37,187 bases of DNA from assembly GCA_027858995.1 (NCBI GenBank), contig JAQIBP010000069.1, forward strand, positions 1 through 37,187, written 5' to 3'. The notes beneath the pieces are model-generated. The model did no database searches and was not told the DNA's origin. It saw nothing but the letters and a program-made list of their open reading frames with translations. The stretch comes from Deltaproteobacteria bacterium (GTDB lineage Bacteria > Desulfobacterota > Desulfobacteria > Desulfobacterales > Desulfobacteraceae). Below are positions 6,612-32,959 of this stretch, in pieces. Both the position numbers and the translations under genes were made by a program. Within the stretch, counting starts at the first letter, position 1; each line of letters opens with the position of its first letter.

Positions 6612-6679
6612 TGTTTTACACTTTAGTATAGTTTAAAATTTTTGATTTTTTTTATCATTATGTGAGGGTTGCCAAATAT

Positions 6680-7441
6680 TTAATTAAAGTTATCAAGTAA
6701 GTCTTTTTGAATATTTTTGTTTGAAGCAATGATTCCCCGGTCTGGAAAATTTGAATTGCCATTAAAATCACAGACTACTCCGCCTGCCTGTTCAACAATA
6801 AAAGCGCCCGCAGCAATATCATAAAGGTTAAGATTCATTTCCCAGAATCCGTCAAATCTGCCGCATGCCACATAACAAAGATCAATGGCTGCAGATCCAT
6901 ATCGTCTTATGTCTCTTAACTGGGGAGCAATTTTATTAAAATATTTAAGATTATTGTCAGAAAGGTTGGATCGCAAACAGGCAAATCCTGTAGCCATGAC
7001 ACAATTTATAAGCTTGTCAGTTTGTGTGACACAAATGGGCAGATCATTTAAAAAAACTTTGTTGTTTTTTTCTGCAAAGAACAGTTCATCCATCCTTGGT
7101 GCCAGAACAGCGCCGTATATTGTTTGACCCTGATATTGCACTGCAATACTTATGGAGTAAAATGGCTGCTGATGAAAAAAGGATGTTGTTCCGTCTATGG
7201 GGTCAATTATCCACAGATAATCCGATGAAAGATTTATTTTGCCTGTCTCTTCTCCAAAAATACCATGTAAAGGATACTTTTTGATTATCTGTTTAATTAT
7301 AAAATCTTCAACTTTTCTATCTATAACAGTTACAAGATCTTTTTTATCTTTAAAATCCACATCCGAGGGTTTTAACAGCTTTTGTTCTTTTTTGCAGATT
7401 TCACCTGCCTGCAAAATTAGATTTTTTAAAAAAGTTTTCAA
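6680..7441 (-). CDS. suhB: Inositol monophosphatase family protein (SuhB-like)
   Basis: A 253-residue Mg2+-dependent phosphatase of the inositol monophosphatase superfamily. The metal-binding residues are all visible: GEE at 63-65, DPIDGTTSF with D80 and D83, and D208 in LYDIAAG, where family members usually have W-D. The segment GSAAIDLCYVACGRFDGFWE is the substrate-side family signature. Substrate cannot be read from sequence; inositol-1-phosphate, fructose-1,6-bisphosphate or nucleotide phosphates (CysQ-like) are alternatives. The start is TTG at 7439-7441, the only start-type codon between the upstream in-frame stop and the first conserved block, with a modest AGG seven bases upstream. 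It is a member of the guaA-to-recX minus-strand run. Confidence 0.88.
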   Translation of the reverse strand: MKTFLKNLILQAGEICKKEQKLLKPSDVDFKDKKDLVTVIDRKVEDFIIKQIIKKYPLHGIFGEETGKINLSSDYLWIIDPIDGTTSFFHQQPFYSISIAVQYQGQTIYGAVLAPRMDELFFAEKNNKVFLNDLPICVTQTDKLINCVMATGFACLRSNLSDNNLKYFNKIAPQLRDIRRYGSAAIDLCYVACGRFDGFWEMNLNLYDIAAGAFIVEQAGGVVCDFNGNSNFPDRGIIASNKNIQKDLLDNFN

Positions 7442-7588
7442 GGTACAGCCTAATCAATTAATAATCTTCAAGTTTAAATTCTAATTATTGATTATGGCAT
7501 ATTAGAAGTTTTTTTCAAAGCCCCTGCATTTATTTTGATCATGGATTCTGGGATGATTCACCCGGGTAACAGGCTCTTAGTTGAATAT

Positions 7589-7744
7589 TTATGAGGATGT
7601 CTCTTTTGAGTTATCTTTTTTTGGTTTTTGTTGTTTCTTTAAACATATTTGGTCATCGCGTATAATGGCACAAAGTTTTGGATTGTGTAATTCTCTGCAT
7701 GTAGCATGATTATAAAGCGGGCACTCAGGGTATTGTTTCGACAT
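7589..7744 (-). CDS. Small cysteine-rich protein (51 residues)
   Basis: A short gene encoding 51 residues with four cysteines spaced C-x7-C-x8-C-x8-C: CPLYNHATCRELHNPKLC followed by AIIRDDQICLKK, then a lysine-rich polar tail. The ATG at 7742-7744 has a good ribosome site, AAAAGGA, ending 7 bases upstream, and the frame is closed by TAA at 7589-7591. The regular cysteine spacing suggests a small zinc- or iron-sulfur-binding fold; this is inference, and I do not recognise a named family. It sits between the coiled-coil gene and the inositol-phosphatase-family gene on the same strand, with about 145 bases on each side in which I see no convincing gene. Confidence 0.72.
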   Translation of the reverse strand: MSKQYPECPLYNHATCRELHNPKLCAIIRDDQICLKKQQKPKKDNSKETSS

Positions 7745-7887
7745 TTTTATTCCTTTTAAAATTATATCCCCAAAGACTGGTTCTATATATACCTTAATTC
7801 TTCAATTTTTTCAAGGTATTTCCAGAGTATAGCAGTAGGCAGTGCGAATTTTTTTGATTTCATCTTTTTTAACAGGCTGTGCGTTGA

Positions 7888-8838
7888 TTATTGTGTCAGC
7901 GATTCTTCCTTAATTTCAACCGGGCCTGATGAATCTATGTTTATTTGCGGCATTGGTTTATTGGGTTTTTGTGCAATCTGTAATATAAGGTCAATGTCTT
8001 TTTGAAGCCTTGAAATATTTGCAGTAAGCCTTTGATTTAATATTGTTAATTGTTCATCAAGATTTTTTGTAAGAGTTTTGACTGAACTTTCAAGTTCATA
8101 GATTTTTTCACTGATCTTTTGGTTAAGGTTGGTCTGGGTACTATGGTCCTGGTCTATTTTTTTATATTTTTTATCAAGCAGGCTTATGTTTTTTCCAAGT
8201 TCACCTATTTGCTGTTCATAATTGGATAATTCAACCAGTCTTGCATCAAATTCTTTTTTAAATAATTTTGTATCCTCTTCTATCTCCCGGGTTGCTTTCT
8301 TCAGTTCAATCTTATTGTTTTTAATTGCATCAAGAGTCTGTTTATTAATTTTTTGAATAGCCAAACCGGCTGTTTTATTCTGATTGGTATTATTGTCAAT
8401 ACGGTTTTCAATTTTGGAAAAAAGACTTTTAATGTTTTTATTATCAGCTTTCAAGGTTGATAATTTTGCAATCTGCCCTTCAAGTGAAATATTTTTCTTT
8501 TCAAGTTCAGGCAGTTTATTATCAAAATTGAATCTGTTTTTTGCTATTTTAACATCTAATGCATTTAATTTTTCTTCTAATTGTTGAGATATTTTCTCAA
8601 ATTGGTTTTTTTTTGTAAGATCAGCACCAACCACCCTCTCTTTCATGTCAAGATAGGCAAAAATAAGAATAGCTCCGATGAGACAGGGAATAATAATGGA
8701 AATAATAGTTACCCTGTTGGAAAGTTTATCAATTTTAAGTGAGTTGATCTCCTGGTGATAAGTTGATTCTGTGATTTCATCATCACTGTCAAAGTCCTGG
8801 TTGTCCGGCTTGAAATCTTTTAAGTTCATGGAATCCAT
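7888..8838 (-). CDS. Membrane-anchored coiled-coil protein of unknown function
   Basis: A 316-residue protein not assigned to a named family. An acidic N-terminal cytoplasmic stretch of about 42 residues precedes one membrane segment (about 44-63, TIISIIIPCLIGAILIFAYL). The rest is almost entirely charged heptad-type helix rich in K, E, L, I, N and Q, ending in a proline-containing tail (KPNKPMPQINIDSSGPVEI). This predicts a single-pass inner-membrane protein with a long extracytoplasmic coiled coil. It starts 20 bases after guaA with AGGA about 11 bases upstream of the ATG at 8836-8838, so it is probably co-transcribed with guaA. Met4 is an alternative start. Its operon position says nothing clear about its role; a cell-envelope spacer or scaffold is only a guess. 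Confidence 0.85.
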   Translation of the reverse strand: MDSMNLKDFKPDNQDFDSDDEITESTYHQEINSLKIDKLSNRVTIISIIIPCLIGAILIFAYLDMKERVVGADLTKKNQFEKISQQLEEKLNALDVKIAKNRFNFDNKLPELEKKNISLEGQIAKLSTLKADNKNIKSLFSKIENRIDNNTNQNKTAGLAIQKINKQTLDAIKNNKIELKKATREIEEDTKLFKKEFDARLVELSNYEQQIGELGKNISLLDKKYKKIDQDHSTQTNLNQKISEKIYELESSVKTLTKNLDEQLTILNQRLTANISRLQKDIDLILQIAQKPNKPMPQINIDSSGPVEIKEESLTQ

Positions 8839-21378: not shown

Positions 21379-23658
21379 TCATTGAGAGTCAACTCCAGAT
21401 GGAATTGGCATAATTTCAACTCTTTTGACATTTTGAAATCCACGGGGAAGCTTTTTCCCTCTGTGTCCTCTCATTCCTTTATAATCCTTTTGGTTGCCAG
21501 GGGTCAGTTTAAAAAAGTGTTTTCCAGAGTGTATAACAAGAATAGAACCCAATGGCAATATTTTAAGGAACTTAAGCCTCTCACCATCTGATGAGTTGAG
21601 CTCTTTTCTCGGTATTGAAATAATTTTATTGCCCATGCCTTTCTGTAAGTTTGGCAGTTGATTCAAGGTAAAGATTAACAGCCTGCCCAAAGATGTAACA
21701 GCAGCAATATGGTCTTTTTCAAGGTCAATCACTTTTTGGGGATGTAAGAGCTGACTGTTTTCTTTTAAGGTAATAATTGCTTTTCCGTTTTTGTAATTTG
21801 TTAATAAATTATTTAATTTAATAATAAATCCATATCCTTTGTCAGAACCCAAAAGAAAATGATTAGAGTTTTTTCCTGATAACATAAATTTTATATGGGC
21901 ATCAGCTGCAATGGAGAGGTGGCCGGTTAAGGGCTCTCCATTACCCCTTGCTGAAGGCAGTGTGTGTGAGTACAACATATAACTTCTGCCGGTATTATCA
22001 AAAAAGATAATTGGTTTATCACTTTTTGTTCTCAAATAGCCAGAGAGGGAGTCCCCGGATTTAAATTTAACATTTCCAGGATCAATTTCATGCCCCTTAG
22101 CTGATCGAATCCAGCCATTTTTTGATAATATAATGGTTACAGGTTGTATATCTATAACATCGGTAATGGAAAATTTTTCTGCTTCTCTCCTTTTTTTTAT
22201 GGGAGAGCGTCTTTTATCACCATATTTTTTTGCATCAGATCTTATTTCCTCTTTTATATACTCTTTAAATACTTTTTCATGTTTAAGAATTTTTTCAAGA
22301 TTTTTTCTTTGGGAGCCAAGATCTTTTAATTCAGCCTTAATTTTAATCTCTTCCAGTTTGGCAAGCTGGCGCAGCCTGATTTCCAGTATAGCCGCAGCCT
22401 GAATATCTGTAAGAGAAAAAGCTTTAATCAACTTGTTTTTAGGTTTATCAGAATTTCTGATGATTTTAATAACTTCATCAATATTTAAAAAAGCAGTGAG
22501 CAAACCTTGTAGAATATGGATGCGTTTTGAAATTTTTTCCAATCGGAAGTTTAATTTTCTTCTTATGGTGTCTGCCCTGAATTCAAGCCATTCCGTTAAA
22601 AATTCAAGCAGGTTCTTAACCCTGGGTTTGCCATTAATTCCGATTACATTCATATTAAAAGAAAAGGACTTCTCAAGATCTGTTGTTGCAAACAGATGAT
22701 CTGTCAGGGCAGTCAAGTCAACTCTGTTTGATCTTGGAGTTACAACAAGACGTGTCGGGTCTTCATGGTCAGATTCATCTCTTATATCACTTACCATGGG
22801 AAGCTTTTTTGTCTCCATCTGTGCTGCAATCTGCTCTTGTATCTTTTCAGTGGAGGCATGATAAGGCAGGGCAGTAAAAATTATTTCATTCTCTTCAATA
22901 TGAAATTTTGCACGCATTTTTATTCTGCCCCTGCCGGTTTTGTAAATTTTTTTTATTTCCAGAGCAGGGGTGATAATTTCAGCATTGGTCGGGAAATCCG
23001 GTCCTTTAATGAATTTGCAGATTTTATCAAGATCTGCGTCATCATTATCAATTAAATGGATCAAAGCTTTTGCAACCTCACGCAGATTATGGGGCAGAAT
23101 ACTTGTAGCCATGCCAACAGCAATACCAGTAGACCCGTTAAGCAGAACATTTGGCAGACGGGCAGGAAGGATAACAGGTTCATCAAGGGTGCCGTCAAAA
23201 TTAGGAACCCACTCTACAGTTCCCTGATCCAGCTCAGCAAGAAAAATTTGTGCATATTGTGAAAGACGTGATTCTGTATATCTCATGGCAGCAAAGGATT
23301 TAGGATCATTGGGATCACCCCAGTTTCCCTGGCCTTCCACAAGAGGATATCTCAAAGAAAAAGGCTGTGCCAGAAGAACCATGGCTTCATAGCAGGCTGT
23401 ATCCCCGTGGGGATGAAATTTTCCGAGAACATCACCAACAGTTCTTGCTGATTTTTTAAATTTTGCCGTTGATAATAACCCAAGCTGGCTCATGGAGTAA
23501 ATGATTCTTCTTTGAACAGGTTTTAAACCATCGCCAATATGGGGCAGAGCGCGGTCTAAAATAACATACATTGAATAGTTTAAATAAGCTTTTTCAGTAA
23601 ACTCCTGAAAAGGTAATTTTTCAATATCCTCAATGGCTGGTGGAAATAACTGTTTCAT
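21379..23658 (-). CDS. parC: DNA topoisomerase IV subunit A
   Basis: A 759-residue type IIA topoisomerase A subunit that decatenates chromosomes with ParE. The breakage-reunion domain includes [28 protein letters not shown] and the catalytic Y127 in [13 protein letters not shown]. coli ParC has serine (S80) where this protein has T87 in the quinolone-resistance-determining region; E91 matches E84. The coiled coil with [16 protein letters not shown] and a shorter C-terminal beta-propeller domain follow, so it is ParC- rather than GyrA-like. The ATG overlaps the parE stop in ATGA, indicating coupling. Confidence 0.95.
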
Positions 23659-25601
23659 TGGTCAATCTCTTTTATATTGCCTTTGGTTTCTATCCAGGTT
23701 TTGCGCTCATGTGCTCTTTTTTTACTCAAAAGCATATCCATGGAACTGTGAACCTCTCTTATGGAATCATCAGAATCATAATCTATGGACAGCTGGACAA
23801 GACGTCGGGAATCCGGAGCAATGGTAGTCTCTTTAAGCTGTGAAGGATTCATCTCACCAAGACCTTTAAACCTTTGAACATTTATCTTGTTTTTGTTTTT
23901 TCTACGCCTTTTGATGCGCTTGATAATATTATCTTTTTCCGGGTCATCCAATGCATAAAAAACTTCTTTGCCTACATCAATCCTATATAGAGGAGGCATG
24001 GCAATATACATATGTCCGTTTTGTACAATTCCGGGGAAATGTTTTAAGAACAGAGCACATATCAATGTTGCTATATGCAATCCATCAGAGTCAGCATCTG
24101 CCAGAACACATACTTTATTATACCGTAATTTTGAAATATCATCAGAACCGGGCAGGACACCAATAACTCGGGAAATATCCCTTATTTCTCTTGATTCCAT
24201 TATGGCAGAAGAGTCAATATCCCAGGTGTTTAAAATTTTGCCCCGCAAAGGCATAATTGCCTGAAAACGTCTGTCTCTTGCCTGTTTTGCTGAACCTCCT
24301 GCTGAATCTCCCTCAACAAAGAACAACTCTCGTCTTCCATGGTCAACACTTGTGCAGTCAGATAATTTAGCAGGAAGTCTCATGCCGTTTGATGTTTTTT
24401 TCTGGGTAACTTTTCTGGATTTTTTTATACGGGCTTTTGCATTTTCAATGGCAAATAGAGCAAGGCGCTCCCCCTCTTTAATATTCTGGTTAAGCCATAA
24501 ACTGAAAGCATCTCTGACCTGTATATTCACAAGGCCTGCACAATGCCTGGATGACAGTCTCTCCTTGGTCTGTCCTGAAAACTGGGCATCGGAAAGTTTT
24601 ATGGAGAGAATATATCCAACATTTTGCCAGATGTCTTCAGGGGCAAGGTATAAGCCTTTTGGCAGAAGATTTTGAAATTTACAAAACTCCTTAATAGATT
24701 CCAAAAGCCCTGATCTGAAACCATTTACATGGGTTCCCCCAAGACTTGTAGGTATAAGGTTTACATAGCTTTCTTCCGGGTTGGAACCTGATTCTGATGT
24801 CCAGTTAACTGCCCATATTATCTGGATATCATCTCCTTTGATTTTGCCGGCAAAAGGATCAGGGAAAATGCATTTTTCTTGGTTTAAACTTTCATTAAGA
24901 TAATCATCCAATCCATGATCATATTTCCAGGTTATTTTTTCATTGGATTTTTCATCAAAAAAGCTTGTAACAAGCCTTTTACACAGAACTGCCTTTGATT
25001 TTAAAACTTTTTTTAATGCAGTTGTTGAAAATTGAGGTGTATCAAAATAGGAGGTGTCAGGGTAAAACCAGATTGAAGTACCGGATTGGTTTTTGCCAAC
25101 TTTTTTAATGGGTTCTAAATCCTGGGTTTTAAATCCGTTTTTAAAACCAATATGGTACTTGTAACCATTGCGTTTGATATGAATACTCAAGTTTGAAGTC
25201 AATGCATTTACCACAGAGACACCAACTCCATGCAGACCTCCTGAATAACTGTAATCCTTATTGGAAAATTTGGCACCGGCATGAAGTTTTGACATGATTA
25301 ATTCCACACCGGATATTTTTTCTTCCGGGTGGGTATCCACGGGCATTCCGCGGCCATTATCAGAAATAATTATGGAATTATCTTGTTTCAACACCACATC
25401 AATTTTGTCTGCATACCCTGCAATGGCCTCATCAACACAATTATCAATTACTTCATATGCCAGGTGATCCGGACTTGAAGTATCTGTGTACATTCCAGGC
25501 CTTCTCTTAACCGGGTCCAGTCCTTTTAGAACTTCAATGGATTCAGCATTGTAGTCATTGTTCGTCTTTTTATTGTCTTTTTGTAGATCAAATAATTTCA
25601 T
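23655..25601 (-). CDS. parE: DNA topoisomerase IV subunit B
   Basis: A 648-residue GHKL ATPase subunit of topoisomerase IV. The ATP site is visible in [34 protein letters not shown] and [14 protein letters not shown]; the TOPRIM acidic motif is in [19 protein letters not shown] and [14 protein letters not shown]. The C-terminal [14 protein letters not shown] is the standard signature. It lacks the long insert typical of many proteobacterial GyrB proteins, which with the parC partner supports ParE. The ATG at 25599-25601 follows a weak ribosome site. It is the first gene of the long minus-strand run and is divergent from the adenylate cyclase. Confidence 0.95.
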
Positions 25602-25706: not shown

Positions 25707-28700
25707 ATGACATCCATTAAAACTGGTTTTAATTTCAATACTTTTGAAAGTCAATGGGAAGAATTATCTGAAGAGGACAAAGCCATTGTTGTTAAAAATG
25801 CAGCTATGCTTGAACCTGAGATTGCAATCCTGCCTGTTCTGGCCGGCATTACTTCCTATCATTTTACTGTCAGAAATAATGCCAGAAAAGGCCTTGAAAT
25901 TATTCAGGATAAAATCACTAAGCTTTTATCAGAACCTAACGATTCAAAAACATATTTAAAAGGTATGAAAGCCTCTGCTTCCATATGTTCAAGAATATAT
26001 GCCAAGATTTATTTTGGAATGCCTTTTAGTGAACTCAGGTTATTATTTAAAATTTTGCTTGTGTTTAAAGGGAAGGGAGCCTCTTTTTCCTTTCAGGCTG
26101 TTTATACAGGCCTTTTATCTGTTGCTGCCATGCAAAAAATTATTTATACTATTCCGGAAACATCGCGTCTTGCCCTTGTAGACAACTATCTTCAAACTTC
26201 CCCTGATATCAGGCTTAAATACGGGTTTTCCTTTAAGAAAATTTTAAGATCAATAGAAAATAGAGATACAGTTGTTAAGTTCTATGCCGATCTTTTTGAT
26301 GCAAAAAGAGATGCTGATCCATTTTTAAATAATATTAACCTTGATTTAAGAGATCCAGATCAAATAATTTCCAATGAAATAAAATCCCTCTCTTTGGAAA
26401 CAAAAATCATGGGTCTTAAAGCCCTTTCCATGATAGCTGCCAAAATACCTGCAGATTTGCTTCTTAATATCCTGGCAACCCAGGAGGTTAAAAAAGTTAG
26501 GATTGTAATTTACAATATTATTGAAAATTCTTCTATGGGAGTATATCCAGAACTTTTTGATCCTGTTTTACAACTTTTTTATAAATGTGATGAACAGGAA
26601 GCTTTCCATGCATTCAAAGCTCTTATTGTCACAGGCGGGCTACCGCTTTATAAGTTACTTGGTTTGGTTATGGATAAGTATCCTTCTCTTATGCCTGTGA
26701 TCAATATTGAAATATCAACTCTGTCTAAAATTTCTTTTTTCTTTATTCAGGATATTGCCCTGAATAGAGAAAAATATCTGAATTCAAATTTTGAAGTGAA
26801 TCTTGCCTGTGTTTTTGGGATGATTAAAAAAAGACCTGAACGTGTTGTTAGAATTTTAAAAAAATATAATGATGAGCTCAATGATTCTCTGCGTATGGAT
26901 ATAAGCAGATTGATTAAAAAAGCAAATTATTTTCTTGGCCAGGAAAAATTCAGTATTGAAACACAATTTGGCCCCATTGTTCAAAAAGTAAAAGAAGAGT
27001 CAAAAAAATCCAAAGGCTTGATAAAGGCTTTTTTTTTAGACTCAAGTGCAAAAGAGATAGAATCTTTTAAAGCCAACAAAAAGTTCGATTCAATAGATTT
27101 TCAAAAAGAGGTAATTAAGGACGTTGATCTTACATCCTCTGAATTTACTTCCTCATCTCTGTTTTTAAATCAATGTATTTTTAATAATTGTGATTTTTCC
27201 AAGGCAATATTTTCCAAGGCTTTTTTCAAAGCTGCTGTTTTTTACAATATTGATATGCGCAAAACAAAATTTGATCATGCTAATTTCGACAATGCTTTTT
27301 TCATTAATGTTAATGCAAGCAAAGCAGTTTTCAAAGATTGCAGTTTCCAGAATGTGTCTGTTTTTAATTGCAATTTCAGCCATGCACAGATTATTAATGC
27401 ATCTTTTATTAATTCAACAATTTCAAAAACTTCCTTTAATAAAACCCATCTTTTTTGTTCCTCTTTTGCATATTCAACAATATCAGCTATATCTTTTGTA
27501 ACCTCAAATATTGACAAGACCGATTTTGCAGGCGTAAAAGCACGATTTTGCAGATTCCCTTCCAGCCAAAGATTGGACATTCAAAGTACTGATATAGATT
27601 ATAATGCCAGGAAATTCCAGTTTGACTTTAAAGATATGCCGCAAATGGATGAAAAAGTTGTCTCTCAACTCAATATGTTGATTGTCAGTGAATTTATCCA
27701 TTATGGAGAGATGAAATTTTTAAGTCAAAATCGGCTTTCTATTTTGACTGCTTTTGATATTTTTAAGCCCGGGCAGGCAGATTTATTTCAAATCATACCA
27801 TTTTTAATCCATGAAAATATCAGCTTTCCCGGTATGGAGGCTGTCAAAAATGACACACCCTGTGGGATATGTGACTATATCCCTGGAATTGAAATACAAG
27901 AAGTTTTGAAAAAATATATATCAAAAGATAAGATAATAGTCCGGCGTCGCCAGAATCATGCAGTGGAAGGCCTTTTTACAATCGGCAGCACAGGTTCTAT
28001 TGCCCAGACAGCAGATTCTGATATTGACTGGTGGGTGTGCATAAATGAGGAATATTTTACATCCCGGGAAATAGAGTTGTTTAGAAAAAAACTTGATATC
28101 CTGGAAAATATGGCTGGCGAGCAGTTTCACACCAAGGTGACGTTTTTCTTGGTAGATATCCTTAAAACAAGAAATAATATTTTTGGCGATTCAAGTATTG
28201 AAAGTTCAGGGTCTGCACAGGCAAGACTTTTAAAGGAAGAATTTTACAGAACAATGATTTATATTGCAGGCAAAATTCCCCTTTGGTCAGTATTGCCCAC
28301 TGCAATCAGTATTAATTATTACAATAGTATTTTAAAGACGATTTCAGATTTTACTAATCTTGCAAGATACATTGATCTTGGCGACATCCATGCCATATCC
28401 ATAAGTGAATACCTTGGGGCATCAATCTGGCAGATGTTTAAATGGTTGAAAAGTCCGTTTAAATCAGTAATTAAAATGGCACTTCTTGAAAAATATATTT
28501 ACGAATATGGCAAAGAATCTCTGCTTTGTAATAAATATAAAGATGAATGGATGAATTCAGGAGCACATCTAAAGCTTGCCCAGAACGATTCATACTATAT
28601 TTTATTGAAAAATCTTCTAAACTATTATGAAACTGCTGAAGATAAGCAATCAGCAGGGATTTTACTCACATGTTTTTTTTTAAAACTTGGTATTTCAAAG

Positions 28701-29579
28701 GATTCTCAAATTGATAACAGTGTGTTTGGCCTCAAAAGAATCCTTCTTGAAAAATGCATGAATCAATGGGAGTGGGAAAAAAAACAGATATTTGAAATAG
28801 GCAGTTTTAAAACATGGGCTTACAGTGATATAGTCAAGCTCTCCAATTTTATTGAAAAATTCATGGTAAAAAAATATAAAACAATAAATAGAGCCTATGA
28901 AAGTCTGTTTCATGGACGATCAGAGATCAGCCCTGAAGATCGTGCTGTACTTGGGCGGAAAATACTTGTTGAATTTTCAAAGCAACCCGGTAAAGTTAAG
29001 AAAGTCCTTTTGGTGTCAAGAGGTGACAGGCATTTGCAGAGCCTCTATTTAAAATATAATAAAAAGAATGATACAATTGGGACGTGGCAGCTTTATAATA
29101 AAAATAGAAAAGCTTTGCAAATCAAGGAAGAATCTTTAATAAATGCAGATACCATTGAAGAAATCGGTGCATGGCTGATTAACAACAGCCTTTATACTGA
29201 GAAAAGTGTTATCAATTTGATTCCCAATCCTGCATATGTGACTTTTGATGATATCCGTAAACTTTATAAAAATATGTATGAGTTTTTCAGTCCTATATTG
29301 AATAAAGTCATCAGTTTTGATCAGTTGTTGATGAAAAACAGGGTGGTTTGCCTGTTTGTTTCAATTAATTTTTATGCAGCAAAAAAGGAGCGCAGTATAA
29401 ACGGATATTCTGCAGTTTATCTCAATTCCTGGGGAGAGATGTTTTGCAAATCTGTTTATTCCAATCAGGGATTTTCATCCATGGATCAGGCAAAACAGGA
29501 TATCATGAACAGAATTGGTATAAAAAAATTGCCTTTAAACACAGCTTTTTATTTTTCAAAGGGCGCTGCGAGGTGTTAG
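25707..29579 (+). CDS. cyaA: Class I adenylate cyclase with HEAT-like and pentapeptide-repeat domains
   Basis: A 1290-residue protein; E. coli class I CyaA has 848. Residues about 1-430 are helical, with HEAT-like helix pairs (LSLETKIMGLKALSMIAAKI). Residues about 470-620 form a pentapeptide-repeat solenoid of roughly 25 units such as CDFSK, AVFYN, TKFDH, ANFDN and CSFQN. The cyclase domain then begins: GSTGSIAQTADSDIDWWV (760-777) is the class I signature with the metal-binding D772 and D774, followed by family blocks such as LWSVLPTAISINYY and IDLGDIHAISISEYLGASIWQMFKW. It should make cAMP from ATP in the cytoplasm. It is divergent from parE and ends 4 bases into the convergent LOG gene. 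AGGA lies 14 bases before the ATG, which is distant. ptsH and ptsI are close by, but no EIIA or CRP gene is in the window. Confidence 0.88.
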   Translation: MTSIKTGFNFNTFESQWEELSEEDKAIVVKNAAMLEPEIAILPVLAGITSYHFTVRNNARKGLEIIQDKITKLLSEPNDSKTYLKGMKASASICSRIYAKIYFGMPFSELRLLFKILLVFKGKGASFSFQAVYTGLLSVAAMQKIIYTIPETSRLALVDNYLQTSPDIRLKYGFSFKKILRSIENRDTVVKFYADLFDAKRDADPFLNNINLDLRDPDQIISNEIKSLSLETKIMGLKALSMIAAKIPADLLLNILATQEVKKVRIVIYNIIENSSMGVYPELFDPVLQLFYKCDEQEAFHAFKALIVTGGLPLYKLLGLVMDKYPSLMPVINIEISTLSKISFFFIQDIALNREKYLNSNFEVNLACVFGMIKKRPERVVRILKKYNDELNDSLRMDISRLIKKANYFLGQEKFSIETQFGPIVQKVKEESKKSKGLIKAFFLDSSAKEIESFKANKKFDSIDFQKEVIKDVDLTSSEFTSSSLFLNQCIFNNCDFSKAIFSKAFFKAAVFYNIDMRKTKFDHANFDNAFFINVNASKAVFKDCSFQNVSVFNCNFSHAQIINASFINSTISKTSFNKTHLFCSSFAYSTISAISFVTSNIDKTDFAGVKARFCRFPSSQRLDIQSTDIDYNARKFQFDFKDMPQMDEKVVSQLNMLIVSEFIHYGEMKFLSQNRLSILTAFDIFKPGQADLFQIIPFLIHENISFPGMEAVKNDTPCGICDYIPGIEIQEVLKKYISKDKIIVRRRQNHAVEGLFTIGSTGSIAQTADSDIDWWVCINEEYFTSREIELFRKKLDILENMAGEQFHTKVTFFLVDILKTRNNIFGDSSIESSGSAQARLLKEEFYRTMIYIAGKIPLWSVLPTAISINYYNSILKTISDFTNLARYIDLGDIHAISISEYLGASIWQMFKWLKSPFKSVIKMALLEKYIYEYGKESLLCNKYKDEWMNSGAHLKLAQNDSYYILLKNLLNYYETAEDKQSAGILLTCFFLKLGISKDSQIDNSVFGLKRILLEKCMNQWEWEKKQIFEIGSFKTWAYSDIVKLSNFIEKFMVKKYKTINRAYESLFHGRSEISPEDRAVLGRKILVEFSKQPGKVKKVLLVSRGDRHLQSLYLKYNKKNDTIGTWQLYNKNRKALQIKEESLINADTIEEIGAWLINNSLYTEKSVINLIPNPAYVTFDDIRKLYKNMYEFFSPILNKVISFDQLLMKNRVVCLFVSINFYAAKKERSINGYSAVYLNSWGEMFCKSVYSNQGFSSMDQAKQDIMNRIGIKKLPLNTAFYFSKGAARC

Positions 29580-30253
29580 TCAGGATGATAGGTTTGGTGG
29601 AAATCAACAACTGTCTGGACAATTTTTTCCGGGTCGTCCAAAATATGAAAAAGATCAAGATTCTGCTTGGAGATCATTTTTTCTTCTAATAATCTCTCTT
29701 TTATCCATTTGACAAGACCTTCCCAATACTCTATTCCCACAAGAATTACCGGTACTTTTCTGATACGCTGGGTCTGGATCAATGTGATGGCCTCAAACAT
29801 CTCATCAAGGGTCCCAAAACCTCCGGGCATAGCTATATAGGCTTGCGCATATTTTAAAAACATAACTTTTCTAACAAAAAAATATTTAAATTCAACCTTT
29901 ATTGTTGCATATGGGTTTGGTTCTTGTTCAAAAGGAAGGGTTATATTCAACCCGATGGAATCTGCATTCTCTTTTGCGGCTCCTTTGTTGGCAGCCTCCA
30001 TAATTCCGCCACCCCCGCCGGTAATAGTTGCAAAACCGTTTTTGGCAAACAAAGCTGCAAGATTTTCACACTTTTTATAATTTGAGTGATAACTGCTGGT
30101 TCTTGCTGATCCAAAAATAGATACTGCAGGGCCAAGATTATATAAGGCATCAATTCCTTCAACAAACTCTCCCATAATTTTAAACAGTCGCCAGGATTCA
30201 CCAGTTTTAAAATCATTAATAGGATATTTACCGTTTATACTGTTTTGTTTCAT
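29576..30253 (-). CDS. LOG family protein (TIGR00730, nucleotide 5'-monophosphate nucleosidase-like)
   Basis: A 225-residue Rossmann-fold protein of the LOG (Lonely guy)/TIGR00730 family. Members release the base from nucleoside monophosphates, either cytokinin riboside phosphates or AMP-type substrates. The two active-site motifs are present: ITGGGGGIMEAANKGA and YIAMPGGFGTLDEMFEAIT. The start at ATG 30251-30253 is preferred because AAGG lies about 9 bases upstream and conserved sequence begins shortly after. A further in-frame ATG at 30314-30316 would add 21 unconserved residues and has no ribosome site. The stop codon overlaps the stop of the convergent adenylate cyclase gene (TTAG). The true substrate cannot be told from sequence. 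Confidence 0.88.
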   Translation of the reverse strand: MKQNSINGKYPINDFKTGESWRLFKIMGEFVEGIDALYNLGPAVSIFGSARTSSYHSNYKKCENLAALFAKNGFATITGGGGGIMEAANKGAAKENADSIGLNITLPFEQEPNPYATIKVEFKYFFVRKVMFLKYAQAYIAMPGGFGTLDEMFEAITLIQTQRIRKVPVILVGIEYWEGLVKWIKERLLEEKMISKQNLDLFHILDDPEKIVQTVVDFHQTYHPD

Positions 30254-30290
30254 AATGTTTTTACCTTGTATTTGCTGATTTAGTTGTTTG

Positions 30291-30321
30291 ATAACATATC
30301 TAACATTGAATAACATATCTA
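30291..30321. repeat. Two direct copies of ATAACATATCTA
   Basis: The 12-mer ATAACATATCTA occurs at 30291-30302 and 30310-30321, 19 bases apart start to start. The repeats lie just downstream of the likely LOG promoter, near its transcription start, so they could bind a regulator. Confidence 0.6.
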
Positions 30322-30456: not shown

Positions 30457-30720
30457 ATGGAAAAAGCAACACTGGTTAAAAATGAGTTTGGTATGCATGC
30501 AAGACCTGCTGGTGTAATTGCAAAAATTGCAAGGACAGCGCATGATGAAATATGGCTTTGTGCCAATTCAGACAAGGTTGATGCGACCAGTATCATAGAT
30601 ATATTAACACTTGGCGCTGTAAAAGGAACTAAGGTTGTGATTGAAATAGAAAACCACGAAGATGTTGAAATTCTTAATCAAATTATCGATTTTTTTGAAG
30701 CAGGTTTTGAGGAGATGTAA
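30457..30720 (+). CDS. ptsH: Phosphocarrier protein HPr
   Basis: An 87-residue HPr that passes phosphate from enzyme I to EIIA proteins. The phosphorylated histidine is H14 in FGMHARPAGVIAKIA. A serine (S45 in DATSIIDILTLGA) lies where Firmicutes and some Gram-negative HPr proteins are phosphorylated by HPr kinase. A TTGACA at 30413-30418 with TATAAA at 30434-30439 (15-base spacing) is a possible promoter, leaving almost no leader. ptsI starts two bases after the stop, so the two are one transcription unit. No EIIA, EIIB or EIIC gene is in the window. Confidence 0.95.
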   Translation: MEKATLVKNEFGMHARPAGVIAKIARTAHDEIWLCANSDKVDATSIIDILTLGAVKGTKVVIEIENHEDVEILNQIIDFFEAGFEEM

Positions 30721-30722
30721 AA

Positions 30723-32498
30723 ATGAAGACTTTAAAATCTGAACAGATAATAATCAAAGGGATCAGCGGCTCTCCCGGGATTTGTATTGGCAAAGCTTAT
30801 ATTGTTGATAAAGAGGGTGTTGATCTTATTAAACGATATTGGATCACTGATGCCCAGGTAACAAAAGAAATTGATAGGTTCAAAAATGCTGTGGCAAAAG
30901 CAAAAAGTGACCATGCCAGGATAATTGATTCCTTGGATGAAGACCTTAGCGAAAATTTAAATATTCTTGAGACACATATGGTGCTCTTTAAAGATAAAAT
31001 GCTGTATGGCAAGACCATTGATACAATTTCCAATGAAAAAATCAATGCTGAATGGGCATTAAAAAAAGTATCAAGAAAAGTCAAAGCCATGTTCAAGGAG
31101 ATTGATGATAAATATCTTCAGACCAGGGTTAATGATATTGTCCAGGTGTCAGACAAGATCATGTCATACCTTGTAGGTGCCCAGGATATTAAAATCTCAG
31201 ATATTAATAAACGTGTAATTCTTGTGGCCCATGATTTATCACCTGCAGATGCAAGTCAGATACAGCTTGAACGAATAAAAGGGTTTGTTACGGACAGAGG
31301 AGGTAAAGATTCCCATACCAGTATTGTTGCAAAATCCTTGAAAATCCCTTCAGTTTTTGGTCTTGGCAGGGCAACAAACGTTGTTAAAAATGATGATATT
31401 TTAATTGTTGATGGCTCTTCAGGAACTTTGATCATAAATCCTTATGAGAATACGCTCTTTGAATATGAAGACCGTATGACAAGGTTTGCAGAATACATGG
31501 CAGGCCTGGAAAGAGAAAGTCATCTTCCCGCTGTAACAAAAGACGGTATTCCTCTCAACCTTATGGCAAATATTGAACTTGTCGAAGAGGTTGTAGGGGC
31601 TAAGGATTATGGGGCAACTGATATTGGTCTTTTCAGGACTGAATTTTTATACCTTGATTTAAAACGATTTCCTACTGAAGATGAACTTTTATATAAGTAT
31701 AAAGAACTTATAGAGTTGATGAATCCGCACAGCGTTACCATCAGGACACTTGATATAAACGGTGACAAGGTGAATCCTTACCTGACAACCGTTGAAGAAG
31801 CCAACCCTGCATTGGGGCTGCGGGCAGTAAGATTTTGTCTTGAAAACCAGGATATTTTTATCACACAGTTCAAAGCTATTTTCAGGGCGGCAGCATTTGG
31901 AAATATAAAACTGCTGATTCCTATGATTTCCTGTGTTGAGGAAATTATTCAGGTCAAGCAGGTAATGAACAAGGCAGTGCTTGAACTTGAAGATGAAAAT
32001 AAAGTTTTTAACAAAGATATCCCTCTTGGAGCCATGATTGAAGTCCCATCTGCTGTAATGATTGCTGAACATCTTGCAGAGCAAGTGGATTTTTTCAGTA
32101 TCGGAACAAATGACCTGATTCAATATTCTCTGGCGATTGACAGGGGAAACAGGCAGGTAGCCCATCTTTACCAGGCATTAAATCCTGCAGTGCTGAAAAT
32201 GATTAAAATGACCTATGATGCAGCAAAGAAAAAAGATATAGATCTTATCATGTGTGGTGAAATGGCAGGAGACCCAATTAATATTCCAGTGCTTGTTGGT
32301 ATGGGGTTGACAAATTTTTCCATGAATTCAGCATCCATTCCTGTGGTCAAAAGAATGATTCGTAATCTTGATACGACAAAGGCAAAAAATAGTTTAAAAA
32401 AAATAATGACACTTAACAGTGTACAAGAGATATTGGAACTTATTTTAAAGGAATACAAAGAGATACTTCCTTTTACCGAGACAGATGAAAATATATGA
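30723..32498 (+). CDS. ptsI: PTS enzyme I (phosphoenolpyruvate-protein phosphotransferase)
   Basis: A 591-residue enzyme I (E. coli 575) that takes phosphate from phosphoenolpyruvate and gives it to HPr. The N-terminal domain opens with IIIKGISGSPGICIGKAYI. The phosphohistidine is H198 in GGKDSHTSIVAKSLKIPSV. The C-terminal PEP-binding barrel has GLFRTEFLYLD, IGAMIEVPSAVMIAEHL-type sequence (here LGAMIEVPSAVMI), FFSIGTNDLIQYSLAIDR and C511 in MCGEMAGDP. No GAF domain is present, so it is the sugar-type rather than the PtsP form. It begins two bases after ptsH and its stop overlaps the smpB start (ATGA), an unusual coupling to trans-translation. Confidence 0.96.
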   Translation: MKTLKSEQIIIKGISGSPGICIGKAYIVDKEGVDLIKRYWITDAQVTKEIDRFKNAVAKAKSDHARIIDSLDEDLSENLNILETHMVLFKDKMLYGKTIDTISNEKINAEWALKKVSRKVKAMFKEIDDKYLQTRVNDIVQVSDKIMSYLVGAQDIKISDINKRVILVAHDLSPADASQIQLERIKGFVTDRGGKDSHTSIVAKSLKIPSVFGLGRATNVVKNDDILIVDGSSGTLIINPYENTLFEYEDRMTRFAEYMAGLERESHLPAVTKDGIPLNLMANIELVEEVVGAKDYGATDIGLFRTEFLYLDLKRFPTEDELLYKYKELIELMNPHSVTIRTLDINGDKVNPYLTTVEEANPALGLRAVRFCLENQDIFITQFKAIFRAAAFGNIKLLIPMISCVEEIIQVKQVMNKAVLELEDENKVFNKDIPLGAMIEVPSAVMIAEHLAEQVDFFSIGTNDLIQYSLAIDRGNRQVAHLYQALNPAVLKMIKMTYDAAKKKDIDLIMCGEMAGDPINIPVLVGMGLTNFSMNSASIPVVKRMIRNLDTTKAKNSLKKIMTLNSVQEILELILKEYKEILPFTETDENI

Positions 32499-32959
32499 AT
32501 GAAGAATATATTAAAATTATTGCAAACAATAAAAAAGCCAGGCACAATTATTTAATTGAATCAGAATATGAAGCAGGAATTGTGCTGGTTGGCTCTGAAG
32601 TAAAATCTATCCGTGAGGGAAAAGTCAGTTTCCATGATTCCTATGCTGACATTAGAAATGGTGAAATTTTTTTAAGGCGATTGCATATTTCACCATACAA
32701 ATATGCCTACTACACCAACCATGAATCCTTGAGAACAAGAAAACTTCTGCTCCATGGATATGAGATTCAAAAAATATGGAGTAAAATTAAAGAGAGAGGT
32801 TATTCCCTTATACCTTTGAAAATATATTTCAAAAACAGTAATATCAAAGTCAAACTCGGTCTTGGTAAAGGTAAAAAATTATTTGATAAAAGAGAAAGTA
32901 TCAAACGAAAAGATATGAAACGAGACCTTGACCGGGAACGTAAAAAACAATCCTGGTAA
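32495..32959 (+). CDS. smpB: SsrA-binding protein SmpB
   Basis: A 154-residue tmRNA-binding protein needed for ribosome rescue. Family signatures include NKKARHNYLIESEYEAGIV, LVGSEVKSIREGKVSF and LLLHGYEIQKI, plus the basic C-terminal tail (KLFDKRESIKRKDMKRDLD) that enters the empty mRNA channel. It overlaps the end of ptsI by 4 bases and lies 87 bases upstream of its partner RNA, ssrA. Confidence 0.97.
   Translation: MNEEYIKIIANNKKARHNYLIESEYEAGIVLVGSEVKSIREGKVSFHDSYADIRNGEIFLRRLHISPYKYAYYTNHESLRTRKLLLHGYEIQKIWSKIKERGYSLIPLKIYFKNSNIKVKLGLGKGKKLFDKRESIKRKDMKRDLDRERKKQSW

What the first reader, a model, noticed from the sequence alone, without database searches (positions are those of the whole stretch)
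25707..29579. Adenylate cyclase fused to a pentapeptide-repeat solenoid and a helical repeat region
The class I cyclase signature starts only near residue 760. Before it are about 430 residues of HEAT-like helices and about 150 residues of pentapeptide repeats. In gammaproteobacterial CyaA the regulatory part is C-terminal, so this protein probably senses something through its N-terminal repeats by a different route.
Basis: partly seen in the sequence, partly recalled or inferred. Interest (0 to 1): 0.65.

Follow-up and report, generated by a model that had tools for sequence, protein, structure and literature searches.

The report
Bacterial cyclase fused to solenoid repeats
A sulfate reducer's cAMP-making enzyme, of the type known from E. 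coli, carries two repeat modules in front instead of E. coli's tail; the same layout recurs in relatives, often beside two phosphorelay genes, so it may be switched by a route different from E. coli's.

Summary
Window 25707-29579 encodes one 1290-residue protein: a helical HEAT-like array (about 10-455), a pentapeptide-repeat beta-helix (462-613) and a complete class I adenylate cyclase core starting near 666, not 760. Conserved catalytic positions match E. coli CyaA; E. coli residues 641-820 have no counterpart. The layout occurs in 15 of 23 sampled genomes of the genus and in at least four other family groups of the phylum, and falls on one side of one branch in a cyclase tree, so it looks like a single old fusion. 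In many Desulfobacteraceae loci the gene lies next to HPr and Enzyme I of a PTS; 24 genus genomes searched have no PTS_EIIC-family permease and no EIIA-Glc. My best reading is a soluble cyclase controlled by partner proteins docking on the N-terminal solenoids, with the regulatory PTS as leading but unproven candidate. Five relatives lack exactly this gene while keeping both flanks, one with a remnant: natural knock-outs. Activity, partner and signal are untested. New variant of a known kind.

The parts
25707..29579 (+). HEAT-like + pentapeptide-repeat + class I adenylate cyclase gene, 1290 aa
   Evidence: ORF and translation; Pfam and NCBIfam; only PF01295 match in this genome
25734..27071 (+). 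residues 10-455: helical (HEAT-like) array
   Evidence: AlphaFold2 model, pLDDT mostly 86-97 to residue 430, 50-62 at 431-460; HEAT_2 in 6 of 51 aligned relatives, over cut-off in homologue L073
27084..27551 (+). residues 460-615: pentapeptide-repeat beta-helix
   Evidence: Pfam, model, Z up to 22.7 to solved PPR proteins, 5-residue periodicity; 154-156 residues long in 53 of 58 relatives
27651..27761 (+). residues 649-685: long predicted helix joining the PPR domain to the cyclase; its second half (from 670) aligns with E. coli CyaA from residue 11
   Evidence: model of residues 440-1290 (pLDDT about 49-62 at 620-659, higher after); alignment
27714..28286 (+). Adenyl_cycl_N domain, residues 670-860
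   Evidence: Pfam E 2.2e-46
27984..28034 (+). nucleotidyltransferase motif, residues 760-776, with D772, D774, W776
   Evidence: equal to E. coli D114, D116, W118; invariant in 13 of 13 aligned class I cyclases
28368..29375 (+). Adenylate_cycl domain, residues 888-1223 (holds D961 = E. coli D300)
   Evidence: Pfam E 9.2e-52
23655..25601 (-). divergent neighbour: gyrase B / ParE-type topoisomerase subunit
   Evidence: Pfam
21379..23658 (-). gyrase A / ParC-type topoisomerase subunit
   Evidence: Pfam
29576..30316 (-). convergent neighbour: LOG family (Lysine_decarbox), overlaps the cyclase frame by 4 bases
   Evidence: coordinates; Pfam
30457..30720 (+). HPr, with the GMHARPA histidine site
   Evidence: Pfam PTS-HPr E 1.4e-18; sequence
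30723..32498 (+). PTS Enzyme I, with GGKDSH site
   Evidence: Pfam PEP-utilizers; sequence
32495..32959 (+). SmpB
   Evidence: Pfam E 8.8e-58

Best explanation
A soluble class I adenylate cyclase whose control region sits at the N-terminus. A partner protein docks on the helical array (10-455); the short, nearly fixed-length pentapeptide beta-helix (462-613) acts as a stiff coupler; a long helix (649-685), whose second half aligns with the start of E. coli CyaA, passes the change to the nucleotidyltransferase site (D772, D774, D961). SHOWN by sequence or prediction: the three domains, conserved catalytic positions, lack of E. coli 641-820, one group in the tree, gene context. INFERRED: catalytic activity, that the solenoids regulate, and the coupling path. 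The most likely input, at about 0.3-0.35 probability, is the phosphorylation state of the regulatory PTS (HPr and Enzyme I beside the gene; EIIA-Ntr-type and EIIA-Man proteins elsewhere), so that cAMP would report PEP/pyruvate or nitrogen status. The confidence below is for the regulated N-terminal-solenoid cyclase, not for the PTS input.
For: Cyclase: Pfam/NCBIfam; in an alignment of 13 class I cyclases, 25 columns are invariant in the 12 others and the window protein has the same residue in 25 of 25, among them D772/D774/W776/D961 = E. coli D114/D116/W118/D300. Solenoids; pentapeptide models match 51 of 51 aligned N-termini. Kept as a unit: 42 of 42 rows labelled HEAT-PPR on one side of a branch in an 81-row cyclase tree, one change, SH-aLRT 84; PPR length 154-156 in 53 of 58 relatives although identity there is 15-71%, as expected of a part whose length matters. 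Other control routes missing: E. coli 641-820, EIIA-Glc 0 of 24 genus genomes. PTS link: of 41 loci with both flanks long enough, 19 have topoisomerase and HPr-EI, 4 HPr-EI only, 2 topoisomerase only, 16 neither; in 7 loci without the LOG gene, HPr follows the cyclase on the same strand 83-244 nt on (my subtraction of coordinates); PTS_EIIC permease family 0 of 24, PF00359 (EIIA-Ntr/fructose type) 23 of 24, EIIA-Man 19 of 24.
Against: No activity or interaction was measured. The PTS neighbourhood is missing in 18 of the 41 loci with both flanks, including the seven second copies, two of six such Desulfamplus loci, the two Desulfobacterium loci and the seven more distant loci, and it also holds housekeeping genes (topoisomerase, smpB), so it may be passive. 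Where the cyclase is absent the PTS genes stayed, so the PTS does other work. The LOG gene separates cyclase and HPr in the window. The branch has only 84% SH-aLRT in a quick search without bootstrap. Both joints of the proposed rod are weakly predicted: 431-460 (pLDDT 50-62) and 620-659 (about 49-62, though 75-89), so a stiff path is not shown. No search for a PTS-docking site was made. Eight of 23 sampled genus genomes show no class I cyclase.
Confidence: 0.57

Rival explanations
1. The solenoids are a scaffold or address label: they hold the cyclase at a site or in an oligomer and do not change its rate.
For: Helical and pentapeptide solenoids are generally binding surfaces (established knowledge). 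The stand-alone cyclases in the same phylum lack them, so the core is complete without them. The joints at 431-460 and 620-659 are weakly predicted and may be flexible.
Against: Near-constant PPR length and long-term retention of all parts in one group fit coupling at least as well, but do not exclude this.
Confidence: 0.25
2. N-terminal control by a partner or ligand unrelated to the PTS; the HPr-EI neighbourhood is passive old gene order. (A sub-case of the best explanation, not exclusive of it.)
For: 16 of 41 loci with both flanks have neither neighbour set; others have different signalling neighbours: PilZ protein in Desulfamplus, CHASE2 class III cyclase in L147 and L149.
Against: HPr-EI stays downstream in four Desulfamplus loci with both flanks long enough, where the topoisomerase genes are not beside the cyclase, and in L146, whose upstream side is not held.
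Confidence: 0.4
3. The pentapeptide domain binds topoisomerase IV or gyrase, like Qnr and MfpA, and reports on DNA topology.
For: The fold matches Qnr and MfpA and the divergent neighbours are gyrase/topoisomerase subunits, in 21 of 41 loci.
Against: Qnr/MfpA act as acidic DNA mimics (recalled); here the PPR domain has net charge +2 and relatives range from +5 to -10. All PPR proteins share the fold. The topoisomerase genes remain where the cyclase is absent.
Confidence: 0.04
4. The protein is not an adenylate cyclase in function (inactive, or another nucleotidyl transfer).
For: Score is below all nine NCBIfam class I equivalog cut-offs listed (best 410 vs 802 bits); this genome also has 15 class III cyclase domain matches, so cAMP could come from elsewhere.
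Against: It keeps the residue in 25 of 25 columns that are invariant in 12 other class I cyclases, the aspartates of the nucleotidyltransferase motif included.
Confidence: 0.07

Closest known systems
E. coli CyaA (class I adenylate cyclase, 848 aa)
   Same: Adenyl_cycl_N and Adenylate_cycl core; D114, D116, W118, D300 equivalents. Input in E. coli also comes from the PTS (EIIA-Glc; stated for enterobacteria in PMC2405797, passages read).
   Different: Nothing in E. coli corresponds to residues 1 to about 665; E. coli 641-820 has no counterpart here; no EIIA-Glc in 24 genus genomes.
Stand-alone class I cyclases of the same phylum and of Nitrospinota and Nitrospirota records (roughly 610-750 aa frames)
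   Same: Same catalytic core, too short for an E. coli-type tail.
   Different: No repeats. The 31 rows labelled short in the tree fall outside the HEAT-PPR group. The window genome has none.
C-terminally extended class I cyclases (family groups f45, f46, f104)
   Same: Next group in the tree, branch supports 86 and 89.
   Different: Extra region mainly C-terminal; frames L072, L075 and L080 also begin some 190-340 residues before the cyclase domain (start codons not verified). No Pfam domain over cut-off in the extensions of the five scanned.
Pentapeptide-repeat proteins HetL, MfpA, QnrB1
   Same: Beta-helix fold, Z 19.6-21.9.
   Different: Those are small free proteins; here a 7-8-coil domain inside a cyclase, not strongly acidic.
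Yeast Cyr1, leucine-rich-repeat solenoid plus class III cyclase controlled by Ras (recalled, no call)
   Same: Works-like analogy: solenoid in front of a cyclase as docking site.
   Different: Different cyclase class, different solenoid, eukaryote; no homology claimed.

Membership tests
Class I adenylate cyclase | Adenyl_cycl_N and Adenylate_cycl domains over gathering cut-off | tested here: met
   158.8 and 176.9 bits vs 27
Class I adenylate cyclase | nucleotidyltransferase motif and conserved acidic residues | tested here: met
   25 of 25 columns invariant in 12 other class I cyclases kept; D772, D774, W776, D961 = E. coli D114, D116, W118, D300
Class I adenylate cyclase | makes cAMP from ATP | not testable with these tools
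   needs an assay
E. coli-type CyaA (EIIA-Glc controlled) | C-terminal regulatory stretch | tested here: not met
   E. coli 641-820 has no counterpart; exact limits of the E. coli regulatory part are recalled, not from a call
E. coli-type CyaA (EIIA-Glc controlled) | EIIA-Glc present | tested here: not met
   PF00358 in 0 of 24 genus genomes; control rings in E. coli
E. coli-type CyaA (EIIA-Glc controlled) | NCBIfam equivalog score | tested here: not met
   best 410.2 bits, cut-off 802
Pentapeptide-repeat fold | A(D/N)LXX periodicity and four-sided beta-helix | tested here: met
   Pfam over cut-offs, periodicity, model and Z up to 22.7
HEAT repeat | Pfam HEAT model over cut-off in the window protein | tested here: not met
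   no HEAT match up to E 1; at E 0.001 in 6 (HEAT_2) and 2 (HEAT) of 51 aligned N-termini
HEAT-like alpha-solenoid | array of antiparallel helix pairs | tested here: inconclusive
   all-helical, mostly confident model; geometry not compared alone, since PPR hits filled the fold search
Qnr/MfpA topoisomerase mimics | strongly acidic PPR surface | tested here: not met
   net +2 for residues 460-615 (whole-domain charge, surface not mapped)

The most novel reading that the evidence does not exclude
A second, separately evolved wiring of the PTS to a class I cyclase: phosphorylated or unphosphorylated HPr, Enzyme I or a regulatory EIIA of a PTS without EIIC-family permeases docks on the N-terminal helical array, and the pentapeptide rod carries the signal to the catalytic core, where E. 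coli uses EIIA-Glc and the C-terminus.
Probability: 0.3. Interest if true: 0.75.

Novelty: new variant of a known kind. Interest (0 to 1): 0.5.

Why it matters
[quoted passage not shown] Here is a lineage in another phylum with a dedicated N-terminal module, often next to HPr and Enzyme I, in a genus without EIIC-family permeases or EIIA-Glc in the 24 genomes searched. It gives a direct test of whether PTS control of class I cyclases is older or arose twice. None of the 48 solved-structure matches of a 51-sequence profile has its best stretch in the cyclase core, so a structure would be new ground.

Tried and rejected
Topoisomerase-binding PPR: considered because of the divergent ParE/ParC-type neighbours and the Qnr/MfpA fold match; lowered by charge.

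Finding the cAMP receptor by co-occurrence: all 10 genomes checked (5 with, 5 without the cyclase) have cNMP-binding proteins (6-14 matches) and class III cyclase domains (1-15 matches), so no receptor could be assigned. The best PF00027 match in the window genome (L170) lies beside a frame that looks like hybrid cluster protein (recalled name) and lacks the Arg-Ser/Thr of a cAMP pocket in its phosphate-binding stretch (read by eye).

HPr kinase: PF07475 matches in 7 of 24 genomes, 2 over the cut-off; not used.

HEAT array by fold search: PPR hits filled the lists, so its nearest solved fold is untested. The 'viral' fold library was not used.

Shared partner gene from neighbours: clusters c9, c12, c14, c52, c58 occur in 8, 5, 3, 2 and 2 loci only (Pfam).

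Literature: no paper holding 'class I adenylate cyclase' with 'pentapeptide repeat' (0 papers), none with adenylate cyclase, Desulfobacula and cAMP (0 papers); among the rows listed (some lists are capped) no title or abstract start describes this protein. The library is open-access PMC only.

Gammaproteobacteria survey for the same layout: not done, one search failed.
Full report
CHECKING THE OBSERVATION. The frame 25707-29579 (+) codes for 1290 residues. Pfam finds the two class I cyclase domains at 670-860 and 888-1223 and pentapeptide repeats between 490 and 612, all over their cut-offs; no HEAT model matches this protein. Of 51 aligned N-termini (window included), 51 match pentapeptide models, 6 match HEAT_2 (best E 6.1e-14) and 2 match HEAT at E 0.001. 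NCBIfam's class I models match 666-1254 at best, far below their equivalog cut-offs. A profile of residues 440-1290 of 51 sequences matches 48 solved sequences at E 0.01, none with its best stretch in the cyclase core.

STRUCTURE. The protein exceeds the size limit, so two overlapping pieces were predicted with alignments of 51 sequences. Piece 1-660: pLDDT 89.7, pTM 0.87, helices 10-455, beta-helix 462-613; low confidence (50-62) at 431-460. Piece 440-1290: pLDDT 82.6, pTM 0.71, the same beta-helix, a weak stretch at about 620-659 (49-62 here, 75-89 in the other piece), a long helix 649-685, then the mixed cyclase core. So the parts are well predicted, the joints between them less so. The beta-helix aligns to solved pentapeptide-repeat proteins (synthetic beta1 4ycq Z 22.7, rmsd 2.5, 173 aligned; HetL 3du1 Z 21.9, rmsd 2.1, 185 aligned). 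For the cyclase piece, the first 49 of the 50 rows shown are matches to pentapeptide-containing proteins; the last is an aminoglycoside nucleotidyltransferase (6xz0, E 1.4e-3), in line with the below-cut-off Polbeta match. One residue phase of 460-615 is 77% hydrophobic and the phase two before it 75% small, the classic pattern.

CATALYTIC CORE. In an alignment of 13 class I cyclases (the window protein, E. coli, and 11 chosen from 155 domain segments) 25 columns are invariant in the 12 others, and the window protein has the same residue in 25 of 25. They include E. coli D114, D116, W118 and D300 = D772, D774, W776 and D961. That these four matter in E. coli is recalled, not from a call. The window protein aligns with E. 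coli from residue 670 (E. coli 11) to 1282 (E. coli 640); E. coli 641-820 has no counterpart. So the solenoids stand in front of a normal class I start.

DISTRIBUTION. Own genome: one class I cyclase. Genus: 15 of 23 sampled genomes have the long form, some only as pieces at contig ends; 8 have no class I match (of these, G014 and G021 have pentapeptide matches only). One copy (G012, L015/L112) has stops in frame. Several genomes carry a second long copy and a stand-alone cyclase. Phylum: 50 of 395 sampled genomes have Adenyl_cycl_N; 10 of these 50 carry long HEAT-PPR forms (window; G386; G042, G079, G115; G077, G249, G312, G332, G426), eight of them checked by Pfam for the pentapeptide part, two by alignment or phmmer only. 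G035, adds a further family group (Pfam). In the named collection, 303 stretches were confirmed and the best 79 distinct loci kept; those with the long form bear names such as Desulfobacula, Desulfobacter, Desulfotignum, Desulfospira, Desulfamplus and Desulfobacterium; a Desulfovibrio record (L159) matches from residue 486 on, its N-terminus not checked. The nearest is a Desulfobacula metagenome genome, 74% identical.

TREE. 81 of 155 segments, chosen by me to thin near-copies and fragments, were used (quick method, no bootstrap). Labels come from frame length and alignment, not from a Pfam scan of every row. The 42 HEAT-PPR rows are one side of a branch (SH-aLRT 84, not starred; one change; shuffled mean 27.2). 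Next to them lie C-terminally extended cyclases. This fits one fusion before the split of the f63/Desulfovibrio-like and Desulfobacterales-like lineages, or later transfer; the root is not inferred. The E. coli and L070 rows are long branches of unsure place.

CONSTRAINT. In 58 full-length relatives the helical array is 12-70% identical to the window's, the pentapeptide part 15-71%, the cyclase 28-80%. The pentapeptide part, measured between fixed alignment columns, is 154-156 residues in 53 of 58. A near-fixed length in a loosely conserved repeat suggests that reach, not surface detail, is selected (inference). Most conserved stretches of the helical array: 370-381 and 196-207.

NEIGHBOURHOOD. 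Order in the window: ParC- and ParE-type topoisomerase genes (-), cyclase (+), LOG (-), HPr (+), Enzyme I (+), smpB (+). This order recurs in many Desulfobacteraceae loci. Among 41 named loci with at least 1500 bases upstream and 4500 downstream: both neighbours 19, HPr-EI only 4 (all Desulfamplus), topoisomerase only 2 (Desulfobacterium), neither 16. The 16 are seven second copies (loci whose assembly also holds a copy in the usual place, by record names), two Desulfamplus loci and seven more distant loci. In seven loci without LOG (L101, L103, L104, L105, L109, L131, L135) the first aligned HPr base lies 83-244 nt after the cyclase on the same strand (my subtraction, coordinates). HPr and Enzyme I keep their histidine sites. 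Of 24 genus genomes, PF00359 (EIIA-Ntr/fructose type) is in 23, EIIA-Man in 19, EIIA-Glc in 0 and PTS_EIIC in 0; the mannose-type permease family was not searched. In the window genome the PF00359 and EIIA-Man matches lie together on contig C40, beside frames that look like rpoN, hpf and rapZ (names recalled).

NATURAL LOSSES. In five genus members without any class I match the flanks are intact and only the cyclase is missing: L187 (G010), L188 (G003), L189 (G005), L190 (G019), L191 (G014), with 170, 127, 170, 11 and 11 nt between ParE and LOG; a sixth locus (L192) ends inside LOG and says nothing. L189 keeps a remnant matching the last residues of the cyclase (score 66; best of 300 shuffles 41); L187 and L188 give only scores within the shuffled range there (32 and 35). 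So the gene was lost at least in L189, and probably in the others given the conserved order, while topoisomerase and PTS persist. This argues against an obligate role in either, and not against either as input.

HOW IT MOST LIKELY WORKS. See Best explanation. The step from domains to 'regulated by docking on the N-terminus' is inference from the absence of other control parts and from the constraint data; the step to 'PTS' rests on gene order and on the lack of EIIC-family permeases, and is given about one chance in three.

LITERATURE. Passages read: PMC2405797 (EIIA-Glc acts on adenylate cyclase in enterobacteria; [quoted passage not shown] a particular adenylate cyclase type in 'VPES' and few species outside; that this is class I, and that VPES stands for Vibrio-Pasteurella-Enterobacteria-Shewanella relatives, is recalled) and PMC1183210 (class 1 cyclases not known as sensors). 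All other papers were seen as search listings only. Searches for the fusion found nothing among the rows listed, within an open-access library.

VERDICT. Real, well formed, old and widespread in its phylum; a layout not met in these searches; function of the solenoids untested.

Noticed in passing
L187-L191 (genomes G010, G003, G005, G019, G014): Cyclase absent from an otherwise intact parE-LOG-HPr-EI locus; L189 keeps a short remnant of the cyclase C-terminus.
   Followed up: yes
L128, L130, L132, L133, L140, L144, L145, L146 (Desulfamplus): A PilZ protein of 425-447 aa (PilZ and YcgR-type PilZNR domains in the one scanned, L133) lies downstream of the long cyclase in 8 loci: a possible meeting point of cAMP and c-di-GMP.
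   Followed up: partly
L147:10071-12278 and L149:8719-10998: A CHASE2 class III adenylate/guanylate cyclase lies directly downstream of the long class I cyclase.
   Followed up: partly
L116, L117, L124, L125, L147, just upstream of the cyclase: A small same-strand frame of 103-135 aa precedes the cyclase in five loci, no Pfam match for the one scanned (L116); the window has no room for it between parE and the cyclase.
   Followed up: partly
L070:5006-5494 and 6626-8623 (G007): A stand-alone class I cyclase sits about 1.1 kb from a 163-aa cNMP-binding protein with an FGEMALLDGEPRSAT pocket motif; similar distances in G004:C13 and G016:C10.
   Followed up: partly
L072, L074, L075, L076, L077, L079, L080: Class I cyclases with a long C-terminal extension, no Pfam domain over cut-off there in the five scanned (L072, L074, L075, L076, L080); next to the HEAT-PPR group in the tree.
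   Followed up: partly
window 29576-30316: LOG-family gene overlaps the cyclase frame by 4 bases, convergent; it is missing in five Desulfotignum loci, one Desulfospira and one other Desulfobacteraceae locus, which brings HPr next to the cyclase.
   Followed up: partly
L171 (G000:C80) and L174 (G000:C172): cNMP-binding proteins of the window genome lie near class III cyclase genes.
   Followed up: no
L015 (G012), sharing sequence with L112: A long cyclase copy split by in-frame stops, possibly decaying or an assembly error.
   Followed up: no
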